Shown: piece by piece, positions 689 through 27,223 of the stretch
Layout of the letters: each line of letters starts with the position of its first letter
How positions within the stretch are numbered: position 1 is the stretch's first letter
Source of the DNA: Armatimonadota bacterium
GTDB taxonomy: Bacteria; Armatimonadota; UBA5829; DTJY01
Direction of reading: 5' to 3'
NCBI GenBank assembly: GCA_025358205.1
Contig: JANYKG010000006.1
Coordinates: 1 to 32,739, forward strand
Length of the DNA stretch: 32,739 nucleotides
The notes under the pieces: generated by a model
What the model was told of the DNA's origin: nothing
The model's input: the letters and a program-made list of their open reading frames with translations, nothing else
Database searches by the model: none
Position numbers and translations under genes: made by a program

Positions 689-715
689 TCACGGATTGGT
701 CAGCACACCCGCACG

Positions 716-1519
716 TTAGCGCATTTCCTGGCCGCCGGTGACGTTTAGCGCCTGGCCCGTCATGTAGTTTGACTGCTCGGACGCCAGGAAGACCGTCACG
801 TTGCAGACGTCCTCGTAGGTACATCCACGGCCCAGCGGAACCTGGCCGAGATACTTTTCCTTCACTTGCTCTATGGTCAATCCCTGGGTTTCCGAATACT
901 GCTTGAATAGGCTGTCCTGCCAGAGCGTGCCGTCCAGCAGGTTACCGGGGCAAATCGCGTTCACTCGCACACCGTACTCGGCCATTTCAAGCGCCAGGCT
1001 CTGGGTAAGTCCGATACCGCCGAACTTGCTGGCGGCGTAGGCAGAGTTCTTGAAGCTGCCCTTCTTGCCGGACTTGGAGTTGATCTGGATGATGCTGCCG
1101 CTCTTCTGCTTTTCCATGACCTTGGCGGCCTCTCGCGCACAGATGAAGTACCCGACGAGGTTCACGTCTATTACCCTGCGCCAGTCCGACACGGGGAACT
1201 CGGAGACGGCGCCGGCCTTGAGGATGCCAGCGTTGCAGACCATGATGTCCAGGCTTCCGAACGCCGAGACCGTCTTCTCCACCAGCGTCTCTACTTGATG
1301 CTCATCGGTGATATCGGCACGGTCGGCCATGGCTTTAACGCCGAGAGCGCTCTCGATGTCTTCCGCTACGGCTTTAGCCTGGTCAACGTTTATATCGGCG
1401 ATGACGACGTTGCATCCCTCGGCAGCAAGTCTGCGGGCGATTGCCTCGCCCAGCCCCTGACCCGCACCGGTAATGATCGCGTTCTTGCCTGATAACTGCC
1501 CGCAATTCTGATTATTCAT
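716..1519 (-). CDS. srlD: SDR-family sorbitol-6-phosphate 2-dehydrogenase (SrlD-like)
   Basis: A classical short-chain dehydrogenase of 267 residues. The NAD-binding motif TGAGQGLG is at 17-24 and NAG at 96-98; the catalytic set is N120, S148, Y161 and K165. The block from IIQINSKSGK through YAASKFGGIGLTQSLALEMAEYG, the VPLGRGC segment and the C-terminal ALNVTGGQ closely follow E. coli SrlD, which oxidises D-glucitol-6-phosphate to fructose-6-phosphate with NAD. It is the last gene of a minus-strand cluster behind a SorE-like MDR enzyme and a class II aldolase, consistent with reduction and re-oxidation of a hexitol phosphate. The ribosome site TAGGAG lies about 14 nt before the ATG, rather far. 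A different polyol-phosphate substrate remains possible. Confidence 0.8.
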   Translation of the reverse strand: MNNQNCGQLSGKNAIITGAGQGLGEAIARRLAAEGCNVVIADINVDQAKAVAEDIESALGVKAMADRADITDEHQVETLVEKTVSAFGSLDIMVCNAGILKAGAVSEFPVSDWRRVIDVNLVGYFICAREAAKVMEKQKSGSIIQINSKSGKKGSFKNSAYAASKFGGIGLTQSLALEMAEYGVRVNAICPGNLLDGTLWQDSLFKQYSETQGLTIEQVKEKYLGQVPLGRGCTYEDVCNVTVFLASEQSNYMTGQALNVTGGQEMR

Positions 1520-1550
1520 GACTCTTACTTGTACTCCTACTCGAAATCAG

Positions 1551-1628
1551 GTGGTAGGTGGTAGTTGTTAGGTGTTAGGGTGCAGAACCGAAAACCCAGA
1601 CTAACACCTAACACCAAACACCCAACAC
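1551..1628. repeat. Heptad-word inverted repeat in spacer (copy D1)
   Basis: The left side reads as consecutive 7-bp words GTGGTAG, GTGGTAG, TTGTTAG, GTGTTAG (1551-1578). The right side reads CTAACAC, CTAACAC, CAAACAC, CCAACAC (1601-1628). GTTAGGTGTTAG (1567-1578) is a perfect reverse complement of 1601-1612, so the two halves can form a hairpin with a 22-nt loop. It sits in the 116-bp spacer between the MDR gene stop and the SDR start, on a transcript shared by both. Confidence 0.75.
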
Positions 1629-1635
1629 TTGGCTC

Positions 1636-3369
1636 CTATATCTCCGCTTTCGTCCTCAGTAACTCCGCTTCCGCCTCGCGGTTCCAGAACATCCCGTCAG
1701 TCAGCATGTCGTACACATTCGGCAGAACGGTCTTCAGATCCTCAACCGCCGTCAGCGCCAACCCGCGAACCTGCGGATAGATAACCACCTTGCCGGGGAA
1801 CTTGCCTTCCTTCGCCGCGAGCATTCCGTCCCACGACGCCTCCATGCCGCCCACCGCCGCGACGGATGTGTTCGTGGAAAGCTTGCCGGACTCCGCCGCG
1901 TGCAGGGTGTCCAGCATATCGCTGACCTTGGAGCCGCTGCTGCCGACAAAGCGAATCTGCTTCGTGTAGACCGGGCTTAGGTCCAGGCTCACGATTGTGC
2001 CGATCGGCAGCCCTGCGAACACGTTCATCAGCCCCTGCTCTGCGAGGAACGGCGCGGCGTGCTCGATCAGCGCGGGTACCGGGGCCAACACCACTATATC
2101 ATCAAAACCCTTGCCGCCGGTGAACTCGTTCAGCAGGTCGTCGAACTCTTCTTTGCTCATCTCCTTCGGGTTCACCACGCGGAAATCTACTCCGCGCCGT
2201 GCCGCGATGGGGCTGAACCGCTCCTTCACGCTGTTCAGGCGAGCAGTGTCAACGTCGGTGGCGATGACCTTCATCGGGCCGCCTTCCAACTCCACCGCGC
2301 GCTGGGTATGCATCTGACCCATCGGGCCGCCCGCGCCTATCAGCCACGTCACGCCGCCGGGCTTAAGCTCGCTCGGAGTGCGGATCGGCGCATATGCGTC
2401 GGAGACCTTCTTGCCCATTGTACCCAGATATGAATGGTTCTTGTAGTGGACCTTGCCGATGTCAATCTTGACCGGGTCGTCCAGCGGCTTGTCGGCTAGT
2501 ATGCTCATGATGCCGTGCGCGCCCAGAAGCGGAGCGGCTTTTTCGATCTTCTTGCCGTCAGCCCCAAGCATAATGATGTCGTCAAACAGACCGTATTTCG
2601 CCTCAAACTGCTCCATGTCCAGCGAGCCAAACGCGAACGACTCGACGAGTTCGCACTCTTTCGCGGCTGCCAGGGCCTTCACTTTGTCCATCATGGTCGG
2701 GCACAGATTCGTCGCCACGATCAGCTTCGGCGCCTCCGCCAGGTCAAGCTCGTAATCGCAGTCGCAGTCACACCCGCAGATGATCCAGACCTTCCCGCCC
2801 GGCTTGTTGGCGGCGCGGCGTCCGATGCGGTAGGATGCGACCACGCAGGCCCACGGCTCGGCGAGTGCGGCCTCGGCGTACCCGGTGTCGTCCTGCATGG
2901 GGAGCAAGTAGCAGCCCTCGTCGCCGTTGAGAACTTCCTTGGCGATGACCTGGTATTGGGTCTGGCCGCCGGGGAGGACGTAGCCCCACGCCATGCTGAC
3001 ACCGTTGACAAAAACATCCGCCTGAACGATATACCGCTGGCCGACCTTGAACTTGTCCTTGAGCTGGTCACCGATGCCGACGATGGTCACCGCCGCCTCG
3101 TGCCCGAGCGTGACCGGGTCGTTGACCAGGTCGCGGCCCGTGATTCGAGGGTGCTTGTCGCCCTGGTTAATCACCTTGATGTCGCTGAAACAGATGCTTA
3201 TGGCATCCACGCGGACCAGAAGCTGATCCGGGCCGTATGATGGCATCGGCAGTTCGTCCGGCTTCTTATCCCGTCCGAAATTCTCCATCCCCGCGCCGTA
3301 CAAATGCCACGTGAGAATGGTCTTCGGGAGAGCGTATGAGACCTCTTTGTAGGTTTTCAGAATATCCAT
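1636..3369 (-). CDS. Zinc-type MDR dehydrogenase, SorE-like, with duplicated Rossmann domain
   Basis: A 577-residue medium-chain dehydrogenase, far longer than the usual 340-400. Residues 40-190 form the GroES-like catalytic domain, with possible zinc ligands C60 (SICFSD), H90-E91 (LGHEAA) and E171 (LAEPWAC). The GQRYIVQAD stretch resembles Klebsiella L-sorbose-1-phosphate reductase SorE. Two Rossmann-like modules follow. Module 1 (about 189-330) has ICGCDCDCDYEL where a glycine loop is expected. Module 2 (about 336-490) has canonical GAGGPMG (345-351). They align with each other: KPGGKVWII/KPGGVTWLI, KKIEKAAPLLGAHGIM/ALIEHAAPFLAEQGLM, YLGTMGKKVSD/FVGSSGSKVSD. GGAGG lies 10 nt before the ATG. 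It probably interconverts a ketose phosphate and a hexitol phosphate with the adjacent SrlD-like enzyme; the substrate is inferred. Confidence 0.78.
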   Translation of the reverse strand: MDILKTYKEVSYALPKTILTWHLYGAGMENFGRDKKPDELPMPSYGPDQLLVRVDAISICFSDIKVINQGDKHPRITGRDLVNDPVTLGHEAAVTIVGIGDQLKDKFKVGQRYIVQADVFVNGVSMAWGYVLPGGQTQYQVIAKEVLNGDEGCYLLPMQDDTGYAEAALAEPWACVVASYRIGRRAANKPGGKVWIICGCDCDCDYELDLAEAPKLIVATNLCPTMMDKVKALAAAKECELVESFAFGSLDMEQFEAKYGLFDDIIMLGADGKKIEKAAPLLGAHGIMSILADKPLDDPVKIDIGKVHYKNHSYLGTMGKKVSDAYAPIRTPSELKPGGVTWLIGAGGPMGQMHTQRAVELEGGPMKVIATDVDTARLNSVKERFSPIAARRGVDFRVVNPKEMSKEEFDDLLNEFTGGKGFDDIVVLAPVPALIEHAAPFLAEQGLMNVFAGLPIGTIVSLDLSPVYTKQIRFVGSSGSKVSDMLDTLHAAESGKLSTNTSVAAVGGMEASWDGMLAAKEGKFPGKVVIYPQVRGLALTAVEDLKTVLPNVYDMLTDGMFWNREAEAELLRTKAEI

Positions 3370-3393
3370 TGTTCTCTATCCTCCGTCTACAGA

Positions 3394-3482
3394 ATGGCTC
3401 ATGGCTGATGGCTCATGGCTCAGGGGAGAGAACCCATCCGCAGCCATCGTCCATTGTCCGTCAGCCATTTCCTATCGTCCTT
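3394..3482. repeat. Heptad-word inverted repeat in spacer (copy D2)
   Basis: Four tandem heptamers ATGGCTC, ATGGCTG, ATGGCTC, ATGGCTC occupy 3394-3421. On the other side, in 7-bp register, are CAGCCAT (3441), CGTCCAT, TGTCCGT, CAGCCAT (3462), TTCCTAT and CGTCCTT, ending at 3482. CAGCCAT is the reverse complement of ATGGCTG. The right arm overlaps the stop codon and last codons of the aldolase gene, so the element forms the junction between aldolase and MDR genes. Confidence 0.72.
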
Positions 3483-4239
3483 CTATCAGTTTCTTCCGCT
3501 GGTCTTCATCAGGGCGATTGCCGATTCGGTACACCTGCTCCGGGGTCATGAAGCTGGGTCCGCCGAAGTTGACCGACCCGGCAAGCACCTTCGCCGTCTT
3601 GTCCCACATCAGCGTGATGCTCTCCACTTCCTTCGCCGTGTCGCCTATCGCAATCAGGCCGTGGTTCTGCATCAGAATCGCCTTCGGTCGGCAGCCGCGT
3701 TCCACGACGTAATCCTTCACCGTCTGACGGACGCTCCGGGCGAGCGTAACGCCGGGATCGGTGTAGTCCACGTATGCCGGCGCAATCCCACAGCAGACGA
3801 TTTCGTCCGGGAATATCCGCCCGATGGTCGCTTTGCGCCAGTTCTTGGTGCAGAGGATGGAGTTCACGGAAATGGGGTGCGTGTGGCCGATGAAGTTCAC
3901 GCCCGGCAGGCTGAGCAGATACGCGTGAAACACGGTTTCGATGCTCGGCAGGTACTTGCCCTGTGGATCAACCATCGCAGCGCGGAGCCTCGCCTTGATC
4001 TCCGAATCGCTCAGTTCCGGACCATCGAGCATCGCCAGTACCCTCGGCGCGTTGACCTCGACCAGCCCCTCTGCGTCAATAGTGCCGAGTTGAGTGCCGC
4101 TGGCCTTCACGTAAAATGTGTTGTCGTCAATCTTGGCGGAGGTGTTTCCCTCGCCGAGTATCACCAACCCCCTGCTCTCGATGCCGAGGTTGTGGGACAT
4201 GTTGATGAGTTGTTGCAGAACCTGTTCTTTGGAAGCCAT
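3472..4239 (-). CDS. Class II aldolase/adducin-family protein (sugar-phosphate aldolase)
   Basis: A 255-residue protein of the zinc-dependent class II aldolase family that includes L-fuculose- and L-rhamnulose-phosphate aldolases and ribulose-5-phosphate epimerase AraD. The phosphate-binding LGEGNTSAKI block, the KASGTQLGTI segment, the zinc-binding FIGHTHP motif and the later MQNHGLIAIGDT motif are all present. The ATG at 4239 is preferred over the in-frame codon 54 nt upstream because the family N-terminus aligns from MASKEQVLQQL and a GAGGGGGG stretch lies about 12 nt upstream. It is the first gene of the cluster, driven by an extended -10 promoter at 4336-4341. Its substrate is unknown; the hexitol-phosphate dehydrogenases beside it suggest a ketose phosphate. 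Confidence 0.82.
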   Translation of the reverse strand: MASKEQVLQQLINMSHNLGIESRGLVILGEGNTSAKIDDNTFYVKASGTQLGTIDAEGLVEVNAPRVLAMLDGPELSDSEIKARLRAAMVDPQGKYLPSIETVFHAYLLSLPGVNFIGHTHPISVNSILCTKNWRKATIGRIFPDEIVCCGIAPAYVDYTDPGVTLARSVRQTVKDYVVERGCRPKAILMQNHGLIAIGDTAKEVESITLMWDKTAKVLAGSVNFGGPSFMTPEQVYRIGNRPDEDQRKKLIEGR

Positions 4240-4335
4240 GGTGAATGCGTTCCCCCCTCGCTCGCTGTGGGCGAGCACTGCCGACACCGACAAAGATTTT
4301 CCAGGATGATGTCGGCACCCGTTCGTTTCGCGGAC

Positions 4336-4364
4336 ATTATAGCACGAACAGCGAGAAACGGAAA
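4336..4364 (-). promoter_or_regulatory. Extended -10 sigma70-type promoter of the aldolase cluster
   Basis: On the minus strand a perfect TATAAT (4336-4341) is preceded by TGC, giving an extended -10. The -35 position holds only TTTCCG (4359-4364, 17-bp spacer). The start point would lie near 4329, about 90 nt before the aldolase ATG. Confidence 0.6.
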
Positions 4365-4388
4365 ACCTTGGATGGAATGGCTGGTCAC

Positions 4389-4417
4389 TTTTACGCCAGG
4401 GTTATATGTGCTATACT
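4389..4417 (+). promoter_or_regulatory. Candidate promoter of the DUF262 gene
   Basis: TTTACG at 4390-4395 and TATACT at 4412-4417 are separated by 16 bp on the plus strand. The site is back to back with the aldolase promoter and gives a leader of about 110 nt before the GTG start at 4535. Confidence 0.5.
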
Positions 4418-4427
4418 AATGTTGAGG

Positions 4428-4453
4428 TTGCCTCGGACTCCTCAGCGAGGCAA
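4428..4453 (+). promoter_or_regulatory. Perfect 8-bp hairpin at the 5' end of the DUF262 leader
   Basis: TTGCCTCG (4428-4435) and CGAGGCAA (4446-4453) are exact reverse complements around a 10-nt loop. It begins a few bases after the predicted start point. No T-run follows, so it is not an intrinsic terminator. RNA stabilisation or protein binding are possible. Confidence 0.45.
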
Positions 4454-4534
4454 GATACGAGTACTAGTTGATATGCGTGGGAACCCGAGGTTGGTAGTTT
4501 CAGTAGTACGTATGCGATCACAGGGAGGCTAGCA

Positions 4535-6490
4535 GTGAAAATCAGCACGATTCTTGATCAGATCGATCTTGGCAGCATCGCGCTGCCTGAGTTTCAGCGA
4601 GGGTACGTGTGGAATCGAGATCAAGTTCGCGGGCTGATGCATTCGTTGTACCGAAAGCATCCTGTGGGGAGTCTGCTTGTGTGGGTCACCCAGACCGAGC
4701 ATGCCGACGCTCGTGGAAATGGACCGATCTCGCCGGGTTGGGTTCAACTACTACTTGACGGCCAGCAAAGAATTACCTCGCTGTACGGTATTGTCCGCGG
4801 ACAACCGCCGAAGTTCTTCGACGGCAACAGGCAGGCGTTCAGTGGGCTCCATTTCAACGTTGAGGAGGAGACATTCGAATTCTATGCGCCGATGAAGATG
4901 AAAGACAATCCCCTCTGGATAGAGGTTAATCGTGTCATCGGCAAGGGCATCGGTCCGTATATGCAGCAATTCAGTACAATCCCCGACATTGATCAGGACA
5001 AGCTGACGGAATATGTCAACCGTTTGTTGGCCGTGTGTGCCATTAAGGACATCGACCTCCATATTGAGCAGGTGACGGGAGAAGACAAAACCGTGGATGT
5101 CGTAGTAGACATCTTCAATCGTGTCAACAGCGGAGGGACTAAGCTTTCGAAGGGCGACCTCGCGCTAGCCAAGATCTGTGCGCAGTGGCCAGAGGCTCGC
5201 GACGAGATGAAGACCAGGCTATCCAAGTGGTCGAAGGCCGGCTACTACTTCAGGTTGGAATGGTTGCTGCGTAACATCAACACCATACTCACAGGAGAGG
5301 CGCTCTTCTCGGCTCTTAAGGATATTGATACCCCGCAGTTCAAATCCGGCCTTGTGCAAGCAGAGAAAGCTGTGGATTCTCTTCTGAACATGACCGCTGG
5401 TAGGTTAGGATTGGATCACGATCGGGTGCTGGGGAGTCGGTATTCCTTCCCTCTGTTGGCACGATACATGGTTCAACGCGGAGGCACTCTAACGGATCAG
5501 CGAGAACGCGATGCGCTCCTGTACTGGTACGTGCATACATTCCTCTGGGGACGATACGCAGGTTCAACGGAGAGCATACTCAATCAGGATCTCGCACTCA
5601 TTGAAGAAGCCGACGGAGCACTTGACCGGCTGATCAACCAACTGCGCCAGAACCGTGGTGACTTGCGCATCAAGGCAGACGATTTCAAGGGATGGAGCCT
5701 GGGTGCTCGCTTCTATCCACTGCTCTACATGCTGACCCGTGTTCAGGGTGCGCGCGATTGGGGAACTGGGCTGCCATTGTCGGCCAATATGCTGGGCAAT
5801 TTCAGCACTCTACATCTGCACCACATCTGTCCCAAAGCATTGCTCTACAGATGCAACTATTCGCGGCCTGAAGTGAACGCCATCGCTAACTTCTGCTTCC
5901 TAACGCAGGAGAGCAACATTAAGATCCAGGACCGTGCGCCGGAGGAGTACCTGCCAGAGATCGAGCGCAAGTTTCCGGGGGCACTCGCTTCGCAATGGAT
6001 TCCTACTGATCCTGACCTGTGGAGAGTTGAAAGACACCGAGATTTCCTTGCTGCTCGACGCGAACTCCTTGCGAATGCGTCCAATGACTTCCTCGACAGT
6101 CTGCTGTCAGGGTCAAGGCCTGAACAGGTGCAGGCCCAATCTGTTTCGTTGTTCGACCGTGAATCACTCGCCATACCGGGCGGAGTTACGGGTGAGGAAG
6201 AAGAGAGGATTCTCTTCGAATGCCTGGATTGGGTTGTTGAACAAGGACTCCCCGAAGGCGAGTTGTCCTATGAGCTAACAGACCCGAATACCGGAGAACT
6301 ACTGGCCGTGATTGATCTTGCATGGCCAAATGGTCTTCAAGAGGGTTTCAGTGATCCAGTCGCACTACTGATAGATGAGGACCTGCAGGTAGAACAGATC
6401 GTCAATCAAGCTGGCTACTTGTTCTTCACCAACATGGACAGCTTCAAAGCATACGTCAAGCAGAGTATTCTAGCGGAGGCGTTGGCCTAG
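4535..6490 (+). CDS. DUF262/HNH protein, GmrSD-like nuclease
   Basis: A 651-residue cytoplasmic protein. The N-terminal DUF262 (ParB/Srx-like NTP-using fold) shows LPEFQRGYVW (17-26), DGQQR (75-79) and FNRVNSGGTKLS (194-205). A middle helical region leads to a DUF1524-like HNH site, HHICPKAL (429-436) with N448, N452 and N461 downstream, consistent with a metal-dependent nuclease. From about residue 530 there is a further ~120-residue extension that I cannot assign. Family members include the type IV modification-dependent restriction system GmrSD and other phage-defence proteins. The start is GTG with GGGAGG six nt upstream. It stands alone, with its own promoter and opposite to both neighbours, which fits a single-gene defence system. 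The target is unknown. Confidence 0.82.
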   Translation: MKISTILDQIDLGSIALPEFQRGYVWNRDQVRGLMHSLYRKHPVGSLLVWVTQTEHADARGNGPISPGWVQLLLDGQQRITSLYGIVRGQPPKFFDGNRQAFSGLHFNVEEETFEFYAPMKMKDNPLWIEVNRVIGKGIGPYMQQFSTIPDIDQDKLTEYVNRLLAVCAIKDIDLHIEQVTGEDKTVDVVVDIFNRVNSGGTKLSKGDLALAKICAQWPEARDEMKTRLSKWSKAGYYFRLEWLLRNINTILTGEALFSALKDIDTPQFKSGLVQAEKAVDSLLNMTAGRLGLDHDRVLGSRYSFPLLARYMVQRGGTLTDQRERDALLYWYVHTFLWGRYAGSTESILNQDLALIEEADGALDRLINQLRQNRGDLRIKADDFKGWSLGARFYPLLYMLTRVQGARDWGTGLPLSANMLGNFSTLHLHHICPKALLYRCNYSRPEVNAIANFCFLTQESNIKIQDRAPEEYLPEIERKFPGALASQWIPTDPDLWRVERHRDFLAARRELLANASNDFLDSLLSGSRPEQVQAQSVSLFDRESLAIPGGVTGEEEERILFECLDWVVEQGLPEGELSYELTDPNTGELLAVIDLAWPNGLQEGFSDPVALLIDEDLQVEQIVNQAGYLFFTNMDSFKAYVKQSILAEALA

Positions 6491-12784: not shown

Positions 12785-13294
12785 CTATTCCCGCTCCAGT
12801 CCTTCCATCGGCCTGACCACCATCAGCCGCGTGTCCATGTCCATGCTGACCACAAACTCTTTCACTGCCGGTATCATGGCCTGATCGGTCACGTACACAT
12901 CGTTCGCCGGAGACCTGATGATCTCGGTGATCGTCCCCAGGCTTTTGCCGTCGGTGGTCACCACGTCCAACCCGATGACATCATCCACATAGTATTCGCC
13001 TTCGGGGAGCGGCGCAACGTCCGAGAGCCTGATGCGCACTTCCATGCCCCGCAGAAGCTCCGCCTTGGTCAGGTCGTCCACTCCCGCGAACTTCATGGAA
13101 ATGCCGTTGTTTCGGACAGCCACGCTCTCGATGCCGAATACGCGCCCGTGGGTTTCGTCTCTGCCCACAAACACCTCGTCAAGCATCTCGAAACGCTCAG
13201 GATGATCGGTAAGCGGGATGACCTTTACGTCACCCTTGAACCCAAACGGAGCGCACACCTCGCCGATAACTACTTCCCAACCTGGATTACTCAT
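12785..13294 (-). CDS. rimM: 16S rRNA processing protein RimM
   Basis: A 169-residue 30S assembly factor that binds S19. It has the N-terminal RimM barrel beginning WEVVIGEVCAPFGFKGDVKVIPLTDHPERF and the C-terminal PRC barrel starting around GEYYVDDVIGLDVVTTDGKSLGTI. ATG 13294 is preferred because the upstream frame adds only MLRRPWSTHF, read from repeat A, and a GGAG lies 10 nt before this ATG. It is followed by trmD after three bp. The 75-bp gap to ylqD contains palindromic repeat A copy 2. Confidence 0.94.
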   Translation of the reverse strand: MSNPGWEVVIGEVCAPFGFKGDVKVIPLTDHPERFEMLDEVFVGRDETHGRVFGIESVAVRNNGISMKFAGVDDLTKAELLRGMEVRIRLSDVAPLPEGEYYVDDVIGLDVVTTDGKSLGTITEIIRSPANDVYVTDQAMIPAVKEFVVSMDMDTRLMVVRPMEGLERE

Positions 13295-13309
13295 GAAATG
13301 AGTGCTCCA

Positions 13310-13354
13310 GGGCCTTCTTAGCATTATCCACGTTTCTTGTGAATAATGCGGCCC
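13310..13354. repeat. Palindromic repeat family A, copy 2
   Basis: GCATTATCCAC (13321-13331) faces GTGAATAATGC (13339-13349), with one mismatch. The outer stem GGGCC (13310-13314)/GGCCC (13350-13354) is perfect, and the left strand carries the TTCTTA bulge seen in the other copies as TTCNNA. It lies in the rimM-ylqD gap and on the shared transcript. Confidence 0.8.
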
Positions 13355-13369
13355 AGCGGTTGTCGCCCG

Positions 13370-13774
13370 TCATTGGTTCCTTATCTCCACGATCAATCCA
13401 TCTCGCGCTACTATCTCGGCTGCCACCAGTTTGTCGTTCAGGTTGTCGCCCACATGGACTTCAACCAGCCCGTCAACATCGGTCTGCCGATACTCCGACT
13501 CAAGTTCCAACGCTTCGGCTGCCGCGATCTCGGCGGTGAGCTTTGCGTTCAGCTCATCTCGTTTCTGCAGTTGGCGCTCCAACTTCTGACGAAAAGAATC
13601 TGCCCGAGCCGGGTCTTTACCCTGCAACTCAGTCAGGTATTTTCGCCCCTGAAGCTCCAAGTCTTGACGCGATAACTCAATCTCGCGCTGAGCTTTACGC
13701 AGACGCGCAAGCAATTCCATCTTGAACTGCTCGGTGACTATCGTCTTAACTATCACCTTGCGATGGATCAACAT
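13370..13774 (-). CDS. ylqD: YlqD-family coiled-coil protein
   Basis: A 134-residue protein recognised as YlqD-like by position, length and architecture. A short N-terminal strand (VIVKTIVTEQFK) leads into a long charged helix from ELLARLRKAQREIELSR to QKLERQLQKRDELNAKLTAEI, predicted to be coiled coil, and a C-terminal beta region VDGLVEVHVGDNLNDKL...GLIVEIRNQ resembling a small barrel. B. subtilis ylqD is also found between khpA (ylqC) and rimM. ATG 13774 is taken as start; a TTG two codons earlier is possible and neither has a clear ribosome site. The family's biochemical role is not established. Confidence 0.8.
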   Translation of the reverse strand: MLIHRKVIVKTIVTEQFKMELLARLRKAQREIELSRQDLELQGRKYLTELQGKDPARADSFRQKLERQLQKRDELNAKLTAEIAAAEALELESEYRQTDVDGLVEVHVGDNLNDKLVAAEIVARDGLIVEIRNQ

Positions 13775-13790
13775 GTGCAAGATTCGCCCG

Positions 13791-14021
13791 TCAAGGGATA
13801 ATCTCTACGTAGACGCGCTTCTTGTCCTTCATCGCCGCAGCCTTCGCTATCGTGCGAAGTGAATTAGCGATCTTACCCTGCTTGCCGATGACCTTGCCCA
13901 GATCGTCCGCAGCAACTCTGATCTCATACGTTGTGGACTCTTCCCCTGGAACTTCGGTGATGTTCACCTGTTCCGGCTCATCCACCAGAGCCTTTACCAG
14001 ATACTCGATCATATCCTTCAA
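13791..14021 (-). CDS. khpA: KH-domain RNA-binding protein KhpA
   Basis: A 76-residue single KH domain with the RNA-contact loop GKQGK in VIGKQGKIANSLRTIAKAA. In Firmicutes KhpA pairs with KhpB (Jag/EloR) and affects cell elongation and sRNA binding; here this is inference by homology. The start needs a decision. A TTG at 14030 touches the AAAGGAG sequence, which is too close. The TTG at 14021 lies nine nt after it and yields MKDMIEYLVKALV, matching the family N-terminus, so it is preferred. It sits between rpsP and ylqD, the usual place. Confidence 0.92.
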   Translation of the reverse strand: MKDMIEYLVKALVDEPEQVNITEVPGEESTTYEIRVAADDLGKVIGKQGKIANSLRTIAKAAAMKDKKRVYVEIIP

Positions 14022-14102: not shown

Positions 14103-14651
14103 CTATTCAGCCGTCTTCTCCTCTACTGCTTCAGCCTCGATAGCTACCGGCGCTTCTTCGGCAACTTCGGCTGTCGGCTGCTCTTCAACGGTTTCGGCAA
14201 CTGCAACCGGCTCTGCTTCTACTACTTCGGTCTTCTTCTTCCGGGCGACCGGCTTCTCTTCAATTGATTCGGCTACTGCTGCGGGCGTTTCTTCAGCAAC
14301 GTCAGCCTTCTTCTTCCTGGCAACCGGCTTCTTTTTCTCCTCTACAGGTGCGGGAGCCTCTTCAACTACTACGGCCTCCACGCCCTGACCCTTGGATGCA
14401 AGGAACTTGGCCACGATGCCCTGCTTCTTCAGCAGCGCCTGTGTGGTGTCCGTTGCCTGCGCGCCACGGCCCATCCAGAGAAGAGCCTTCTCTTCGTCAA
14501 TCTTTATGGTCGCGGGGTCGGTGTTGGGGTCATACGTGCCGATAGCCTCGATGAACCGTCCGTTGCGCGCTCTGCGGCTATCTGCTATGACCACTCTATA
14601 AAAGGGCCGTCCCTTAGCGCCCATGCGTCTCAGTCTGATCTTAACTGACAA
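14103..14651 (-). CDS. rpsP: Ribosomal protein S16 with long Ala/Glu/Lys-rich tail
   Basis: The first ~85 residues are normal S16: [34 protein letters not shown] and the [18 protein letters not shown] segment. The protein continues to 182 residues, about twice the usual length, with a low-complexity tail. The tail holds two similar blocks, [22 protein letters not shown] and [22 protein letters not shown], then an acidic end. It alternates basic KKK clusters with acidic/Ala runs and is probably disordered. Tails of this kind occur on S16 in several phyla. The start is TTG with GGAGG seven nt upstream. It heads the khpA-ylqD-rimM-trmD-rplS-lepB series, 71 bp after ffh. Confidence 0.94.
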
Positions 14652-25247: not shown

Positions 25248-25303
25248 GAGAATGGTTAATGGCTGATTGCGACAAGGTTTCCATTAGCCATTGCCCCATT
25301 CTC
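25248..25303. repeat. Heptad-word inverted repeat in spacer (copy D3)
   Basis: GAGAATGG (25248-25255) and TTAATGGCT (25256-25264) face AGCCATT (25286-25292) and CCATTCTC (25296-25303). Both sides read in 7-bp words: AATGGTT, AATGGCT on the left; CCATTAG, CCATTGC, CCCATTC on the right. It fills the htrA-ribH spacer. Confidence 0.72.
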
Positions 25304-25795: not shown

Positions 25796-25877
25796 TGATA
25801 AGTGATGAGATACCCTCACCCCCTGCCCCTCTCCCAATAATGGGCGAGGGGGGTGCTGGATGTAGTTCACTAATCAT
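25796..25877. repeat. Heptad-word inverted repeat with nested C-rich palindrome (copy D4 plus family C)
   Basis: Outer words GTGATAA, GTGATGA (from about 25796) face TCACTAATC (25867-25875), which is complementary to GATAAGTGA with one mismatch. Nested within is a C-rich palindrome: CACCCCC..CCCCTCTCCC (25817-25835) facing GGGCGAGGGGGGTG (25842-25855) around AATAAT. C-rich elements of this appearance are common in spacers of several phyla. It fills the ribH-ribBA spacer. Confidence 0.68.
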
Positions 25878-27136: not shown

Positions 27137-27223
27137 GTGATGAGTGATGAGTGATACGTGAACTGCTTGTCAGGTCTAGCAAACCTTCCCGCCAAAGTTC
27201 ACTCATCACGTCTCACTCATCAT
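27137..27223. repeat. Heptad-word inverted repeat in spacer (copy D5)
   Basis: Left words GTGATGA, GTGATGA, GTGATAC, GTGAACT run 27137-27164. Right words AGTTCAC, TCATCAC, GTCTCAC, TCATCAT run 27196-27223. CGTGATGAGTGA (27136-27147) is an exact reverse complement of 27199-27210. The right arm runs into the ribE stop codon. It fills most of the ribBA-ribE spacer. Confidence 0.78.

What the first reader, a model, noticed from the sequence alone, without database searches (positions are those of the whole stretch)
1551..3482. Heptad-register hairpins in both spacers of the sugar-phosphate operon
Both intercistronic gaps read as tandem 7-bp words on one side and complementary 7-bp words on the other. 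D1: GTGGTAG x2, TTGTTAG, GTGTTAG against CTAACAC x2, CAAACAC, CCAACAC. D2: ATGGCTC/G x4 against CAGCCAT and CGTCCAT words. The words differ completely between the two spacers, yet period 7, inverted layout and location are the same. Heptanucleotide STRR repeats are known from filamentous cyanobacteria, but I know of no described class of paired inverted heptad arrays with a different word set at each locus.
Basis: seen in the sequence. Interest (0 to 1): 0.75.

Follow-up and report, generated by a model that had tools for sequence, protein, structure and literature searches.

The report
REP-like palindromes built from heptads
The two spacer hairpins are real, but they are not a device of this operon: they are two copies of short palindromic repeats, built from 7-base words, that are scattered by the dozen through this genome, mostly just after stop codons and sometimes in frame inside genes, much like the known REP and Rickettsia palindromic elements.

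Summary
Both spacers have strong period-7 signal and inverted arms (0 of 2000 shuffles reach the period-7 score in either). The interpretation does not hold as stated: the words belong to families, not to loci. The D1 arm core occurs at 79 sites in the genome (control 0), and D1-class hairpins share the same odd heptad. A second family (F2) gives 103 matches counting both strands here but 0-11 in 40 relatives. A 1.66-Mb sample has 72 period-7 arrays against 0-18 at periods 4-6 and 8-11. The window holds five such palindromes, not two, each within 5 nt of a stop codon or overlapping it. Non-coding arrays cluster at stop codons (44% within 15 nt against 18% expected). Others sit in frame inside conserved enzymes; a DegT gene carries a clean 30-codon insert. 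Arms are conserved without compensatory changes, loops diverge, and an arm fits its own partner no better than another locus's. Best reading: lineage-specific, REP/RPE-like dispersed palindromes with heptad arms. The spreading enzyme is unknown; reverse transcriptase and Y1 transposase do not track them.

The parts
1549..1579 (+). D1 palindrome, first arm: GTGGTAG GTGGTAG TTGTTAG GTGTTAG (family F1, word class GTGKTAG)
1580..1599 (.). D1 loop, 20 nt, not shared with other F1 copies
1600..1630 (+). D1 palindrome, second arm: CTAACAC CTAACAC CAAACAC CCAACAC; outer end 5 nt from the stop codon of the dehydrogenase gene
3393..3425 (+). D2 palindrome, first arm: ATGGCTC/G x4 (family F4, word class ATGGCTG)
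3441..3468 (+). D2 palindrome, second arm: CAGCCAT CGTCCAT TGTCCGT CAGCCAT; outer end 3 nt from the aldolase stop codon (3472)
25250..25301 (.). Further ATGG-class palindrome (GAATGGTTAATGGCTGAT ... TTAGCCATTGCCCCATTC) in the spacer downstream of ribH; outer end about 4 nt from the ribH stop codon
25796..25876 (.). Weak F2-like palindrome (TGATAAGTGATGA ... TCACTAATCA) downstream of ribBA, with an unrelated CCCTCTCCCA...TGGGCGAGGGG palindrome in its loop
   Evidence: 16.0 bits, E 0.044
27138..27222 (-). F2 palindrome (word class GTGATGA), full copy; the ribE stop codon is the first TGA of the element
   Evidence: 83.4 bits; it is one of the 16 sequences used to build the model
716..1519 (-). 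Short-chain dehydrogenase, NCBIfam equivalog sorbitol-6-phosphate dehydrogenase (365 bits, cut-off 307), downstream of D1
1636..3369 (-). 577-aa zinc-type dehydrogenase between D1 and D2 (ADH_N and ADH_zinc_N)
3472..4251 (-). Class II aldolase, upstream of D2 (start codon uncertain; ORF open to 4293)

Best explanation
D1 and D2 are single copies of two of several families of short dispersed imperfect palindromes in this genome (about 55-85 bp when the loop is short). Each arm is three or four 7-bp words of one word class, and the two arms are inverted with a fixed polarity. Shown: copies of a family share arms, even the same off-consensus word, while loops differ; F2 is expanded in this lineage and nearly absent from relatives; copies sit just after or across stop codons, or in frame inside genes. 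Inferred: the elements spread by copying of whole elements or arms, as non-autonomous REP/RPE-like insertions, and survive where they do least harm, chiefly at gene 3' ends, where their built-in stop codons can serve the upstream gene. A mild effect on the upstream mRNA's 3' end is possible but secondary. The heptad build of the arms is probably a relic of how the arms first grew (slippage or stepwise copying in 7-nt units). Which enzyme moves them is not known.
For: Same arms at many loci with different loops: F1, F2. Copy numbers far above control: F1 3' arm core 79 against 0, F2 arm 138 against 1 with 24 exact copies of a 24-mer, F2 whole element 103 matches counting both strands against 0-11 in each of 40 relatives. 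Fixed polarity: GTGKTAG words are the 5' arm at all 13 paired loci, F2 15 of 15 and F4 5 of 5 pairs (listings). Insertion: a 30-codon insert made of two opposed heptad arms in a DegT gene, missing in an orthologue with 82-85% identical protein flanks. Position at stop codons: 44% against 18% of non-coding stretches within 15 nt; F2 offsets at -3, -10 and -17; genes that use the element's stop codon are complete. REPs behave the same way (PMC3733652).
Against: No mover identified; no target-site duplication seen by eye. Loops are only weakly related (43% against 26% expected, six loops) while arms are nearly fixed, so arms must be kept by selection or conversion after spreading, which pure selfish spread does not explain. 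Strain-level gain or loss was not observed. Many arrays, above all in coding sequence, lack an obvious inverted partner.
Confidence: 0.75

Rival explanations
1. Functional intercistronic RNA hairpins: a 3' barrier or attenuator that stabilises or limits the mRNA around each stop codon, kept by selection on RNA structure.
For: Position just after stop codons; arms much better conserved than loops; the F2 copy in the window folds far better than its shuffles (z -4.3).
Against: No compensatory change in 13 pairs of 16 F2 copies; an arm fits its own partner no better than arms from other loci (p 0.995 and 0.999); a mismatch in the stem is conserved; no terminator-like T-run; D1 and D2 fold only slightly better than shuffles; arrays also lie inside coding genes and are missing from the same spacers in family members.
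Confidence: 0.12
2. Independent simple-sequence repeats: each array arose in place by replication slippage in 7-nt steps, and pairing is incidental.
For: Heptanucleotide repeats are the commonest class of 5-11 nt repeats in most genomes of one survey, explained there by polymerase slippage (Mrazek et al. 2007 as summarised in PMC4679880); some arrays in other phyla are long and uniform (L161, L183, L210); unit shifts between F1 copies.
Against: Shared odd heptads and exact 24-bp arms at unrelated loci; fixed polarity; lineage-specific expansion of a whole 85-nt element.
Confidence: 0.08
3. Break-repair filler: a polymerase adds heptads to both 3' ends of a broken chromosome before the ends are joined, which would give inverted arms of one word class with fixed polarity.
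For: Fixed polarity with arms that are not exact copies of each other; insertion with slight change at the target in DegT; period 7 recurs in many phyla with unrelated words.
Against: Conserved odd heptads and exact arms need a template, so copying of existing elements explains them better. No enzyme found; no reverse transcriptase hit in the heptad-rich, near-complete genomes G006 and G016.
Confidence: 0.05

Closest known systems
REP elements (GTAG- and CGTC-tagged repetitive extragenic palindromes; PMC3733652)
   Same: Many-copy dispersed palindromes; close to the 3' end of the upstream ORF with variable distance to the next; ends often supply a stop codon; some copies lie in frame inside ORFs.
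   Different: REPs are 20-40 bp with a GTAG or CGTC tag and are tied to Y1 (RAYT) transposases in many genomes. These elements are longer, have heptad arms, no common tag, and do not flank the Y1 genes here.
Rickettsia palindromic elements (RPE)
   Same: Palindromic inserts carried in frame by conserved genes, coding for some 20-30 residues (cited in PMC3733652).
   Different: Heptad-built arms, several word families in one genome, and many copies outside genes. RPE sequences were not compared here.
Heptanucleotide STRR of filamentous cyanobacteria and other heptamer repeats (GGGNATC, PMC4692102; TAACTGA, PMC4679880)
   Same: Tandem 7-nt units, mostly outside genes, near gene ends, patchy across phyla.
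   Different: Those are direct arrays (TAACTGA: 169 direct sets and one indirect); here arrays are commonly inverted pairs around a loop, with arms conserved as units.
Stem-loop sequence families of bacterial genomes (PMC2267715)
   Same: Families of repeats sharing a stem-loop, mostly intergenic.
   Different: Heptad build is not mentioned in the passages read.

Membership tests
REP element | Dispersed palindromic repeat in many copies | tested here: met
   F1 79 arm sites, F2 138 arm sites, controls 0 and 1; inverted arms
REP element | Close to the 3' end of the upstream ORF, may supply its stop codon | tested here: met
   published behaviour
REP element | Length 20-40 bp | tested here: not met
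   F2 81-86 nt; F1 about 70-200 nt with loop
REP element | Unpaired GTAG or CGTC tag at one end | tested here: not met
   GTAG occurs inside F1 words, not as an end tag; F2 and ATGGCTG arms have neither
REP element | Associated Y1 (RAYT) transposase gene flanked by the repeats | tested here: not met
   Three Y1 matches in the genome, none with heptad arrays within 900 nt; heptad-rich G028 has no Y1 match
Rickettsia palindromic element | In-frame palindromic insert in conserved ORFs | tested here: met
   DegT 30-codon insert; other coding arrays
Rickettsia palindromic element | Sequence relation to RPE families | not tested
   RPE sequences were not compared
Cyanobacterial STRR / heptamer direct repeats | Tandem heptanucleotide units | tested here: met
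Cyanobacterial STRR / heptamer direct repeats | Direct arrays without an inverted partner | tested here: not met
   D1, D2 and the F1 and F2 families are inverted pairs; other arrays here are single
Intrinsic transcription terminator | GC-rich stem followed by a T-run | tested here: not met
   No terminator-like site in 700-4600
Known Rfam structured RNA | Match to an Rfam model | tested here: not met
   No match at gathering score in the window; only chance-level matches at 1500-3520

The most novel reading that the evidence does not exclude
A general process working in 7-nt steps, present patchily in many bacterial phyla, makes or multiplies heptad arms of arbitrary sequence, often as inverted pairs with fixed polarity, and these become mobile palindromic families. 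What phyla share would be the period and the layout, not the words.
Probability: 0.2. Interest if true: 0.8.

Novelty: new variant of a known kind. Interest (0 to 1): 0.5.

Why it matters
It links two literatures that are usually kept apart: heptanucleotide simple repeats and REP-like mobile palindromes. It also explains odd peptide inserts (such as KSEIRNP) in conserved enzymes of this genome as translated heptads. The patchy occurrence in related genomes gives a natural comparison for finding the responsible gene, and the question why the unit is 7 becomes testable by strain comparison.

Tried and rejected
Locus-specific regulatory hairpin: rejected as the main reading because the arms are dispersed families. 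Reverse transcriptase (PF00078) or Y1 transposase (PF01797) as a required factor: no RT hit in heptad-rich G006 and G016, no Y1 hit in heptad-rich G028. A word list shared between phyla: foreign words match this genome's list no better than shuffled words (36% against 30% within one mismatch, shuffles up to 51%). Base-pair covariation: none. Terminator: none. Plasmid or phage carriage of D1: no BLAST match, though short repeats and filters limit that test. Target-site duplication: none seen by eye at the paired F1 loci. RNA folding energy as proof of structure: z-scores of D1 and D2 too weak. Pairing by plain local matching of each array to its flanks: only 7 of 36 arrays beat other loci at p<0.05, partly because other loci of the same family match too.

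Full report
Observation. Both spacers are as described. Lag-7 self-match is 50% (D1) and 53% (D2), and in a sliding-window scan the only arrays of the window at lags 4-12 are these, all at lag 7. Dinucleotide shuffles never reach the lag-7 scores and rarely or never the inverted-match scores. Folding energy alone is not decisive.

Genome-wide. The doubled word GTGTTAGGTGTTAG, allowing one mismatch, occurs 38 times in the genome against 1 for the reversed control. I fetched stretches of the genome, 1.66 Mb of 4.08 Mb with the window. They hold 72 period-7 arrays, against 0, 0, 18, 6, 1, 0 and 0 at periods 4, 5, 6, 8, 9, 10 and 11. Part of this sample was chosen because it held hits, so the density is biased upward; the comparison between periods is less affected, since hits were chosen by words of period 7 only in part of it. 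The first 0.90 Mb, itself partly so chosen, gave 33 against 0-10 at periods 4-6 and 8-11. Words include AAATCCG, AAATTCG, CTAACAC, CTACCAC, GTGATGA, ATGGCTG and CGAACAT.

Families, not loci. Hairpins of one word class share their arms. Loci including D1 have the 5' arm AGGTGKTAGGTGKTAGTTGKTAGGTGKTAGG and a 3' arm with CCAAMCACC, with the odd word in the same place in most, around differing loops. The F1 3' arm core is found at 79 sites (control 0). F2, with arms TGATGAGTGAYRAGTGATGAGTGAACTG and CAGTTCACGTATCACTCATCACTCATCA, has 138 arm sites (control 1), 24 of them exact. A model built from 16 F2 elements finds 103 matches in the own genome counting both strands, 0-11 in each of 40 relatives, and none in three of the four family members. 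D2 belongs to the ATGGCTG class, with 66 sites within three mismatches in 1.66 Mb; some of those with three mismatches are probably chance.

Anatomy. The strand order is fixed: at 13 loci in this and other genomes the GTGKTAG-type words are the 5' arm; for F2 it is 15 of 15 pairs and for the ATGGCTG class 5 of 5 (read from the listings). A hairpin and its reverse complement have the same order, so this is a property of the element and not of its orientation. F2 elements usually carry one GTA-type and one TCA-type arm. In the 16 F2 elements aligned, the 25 invariant columns lie in the arms and the predicted stem has no compensatory change. Six loops of exactly 30 nt are 43% alike against 26% expected, so they may share descent but have decayed. 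Arms fit their own partner no better than partners from other loci. Arms thus look conserved or homogenised for their sequence, not for pairing.

Position. Five palindromes lie in this window, each with one end within about 5 nt of a stop codon or overlapping it: D1, D2, 25250-25301, 25796-25876 and 27138-27222. The one at 25796-25876 is a weak match to the F2 model (16.0 bits). Across the sample, 44% of non-coding arrays are within 15 nt of a stop codon against 18% of random non-coding stretches; for start codons it is 14% against 19%. F2 offsets pile up at -3, -10 and -17, which are the first stops of the F2 arm in the three frames. An element that carries stops in all frames would always end an ORF that it interrupts, so I checked whether the genes are whole: AtpG aligns to the end of its model, AroA, HisS and LarE within a few residues of it, and RibE nearly so. 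The published REP survey reports the same for REPs: close to the upstream ORF's 3' end, variable distance downstream, and supplying stop codons (PMC3733652).

Coding copies. About half of the strict arrays lie in coding sequence by my gene calls. In a DegT-type aminotransferase two opposed heptad arms form a 30-codon insert that is missing from an orthologue in the same family with 82-85% identical protein flanks. The IspD-IspF linker and a variable loop of TrpC also carry heptads; relatives have differing sequence of similar length there, so those two are not clean insertions. GTGTTAG and GTGATGA words contain stop codons and AAATCCG does not, which fits their different placing.

Relatives and other phyla. 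Of 29 fetched stretches of other genomes with the dehydrogenase gene, 28 lack period-7 arrays; the exception, from another family in the class, has GGTGTTG and CATGGGG arrays of its own upstream of the gene. Within the phylum the GTGTTAG repeat is patchy. Words of other arrays in those loci do not match this genome's words beyond chance.

Mechanism. The evidence favours copying of whole elements or arms from existing copies; this is inference. No mover was found: reverse transcriptase and Y1 transposase do not track the arrays and the Y1 genes here are not flanked by them. Selection against harm may explain much of the position. A role at mRNA 3' ends is possible and untested.

Limits.

Noticed in passing
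window 1523-1549; also flanks of F2 copies in L070, L073, L307, L309: Hexanucleotide arrays of the GAGTAC/TACTCG type lie next to D1 and to many F2 copies; period 6 is the second commonest array period in the sample (18 arrays).
   Followed up: no
window 25796-25876: A CCCTCTCCCA...TGGGCGAGGGG palindrome sits in the loop of a weak F2-like palindrome: nested repeats. Nesting is also seen in L030 and L061.
   Followed up: partly
L172 about 615-720: In a Parcubacteria record an array of CTACCAC/CTACAAC heptads appears to lie inside the rRNA methyltransferase gene ksgA, read from the translation by eye.
   Followed up: no
L315 around 13050-13800: Another palindromic repeat family, GGGAGCGC...GTGTCCTCAC and its inverse, occurs several times around a Y1-transposase match.
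   Followed up: no
window 14103-14651: Ribosomal protein S16 gene with a long C-terminal tail encoded by a 75-bp tandem repeat (14175-14329).
   Followed up: no
window 4535-6490: A lone GmrSD_N (DUF262-type) protein, a family that includes restriction endonucleases, stands beside the operon.
   Followed up: no
L253, L255, L263 (relatives): In relatives, heptad arrays stand beside other short palindromes such as CCAGGATTTGTAATCCTGG and CATCCCGAGCGCAGCGAGGGATCTG.
   Followed up: no
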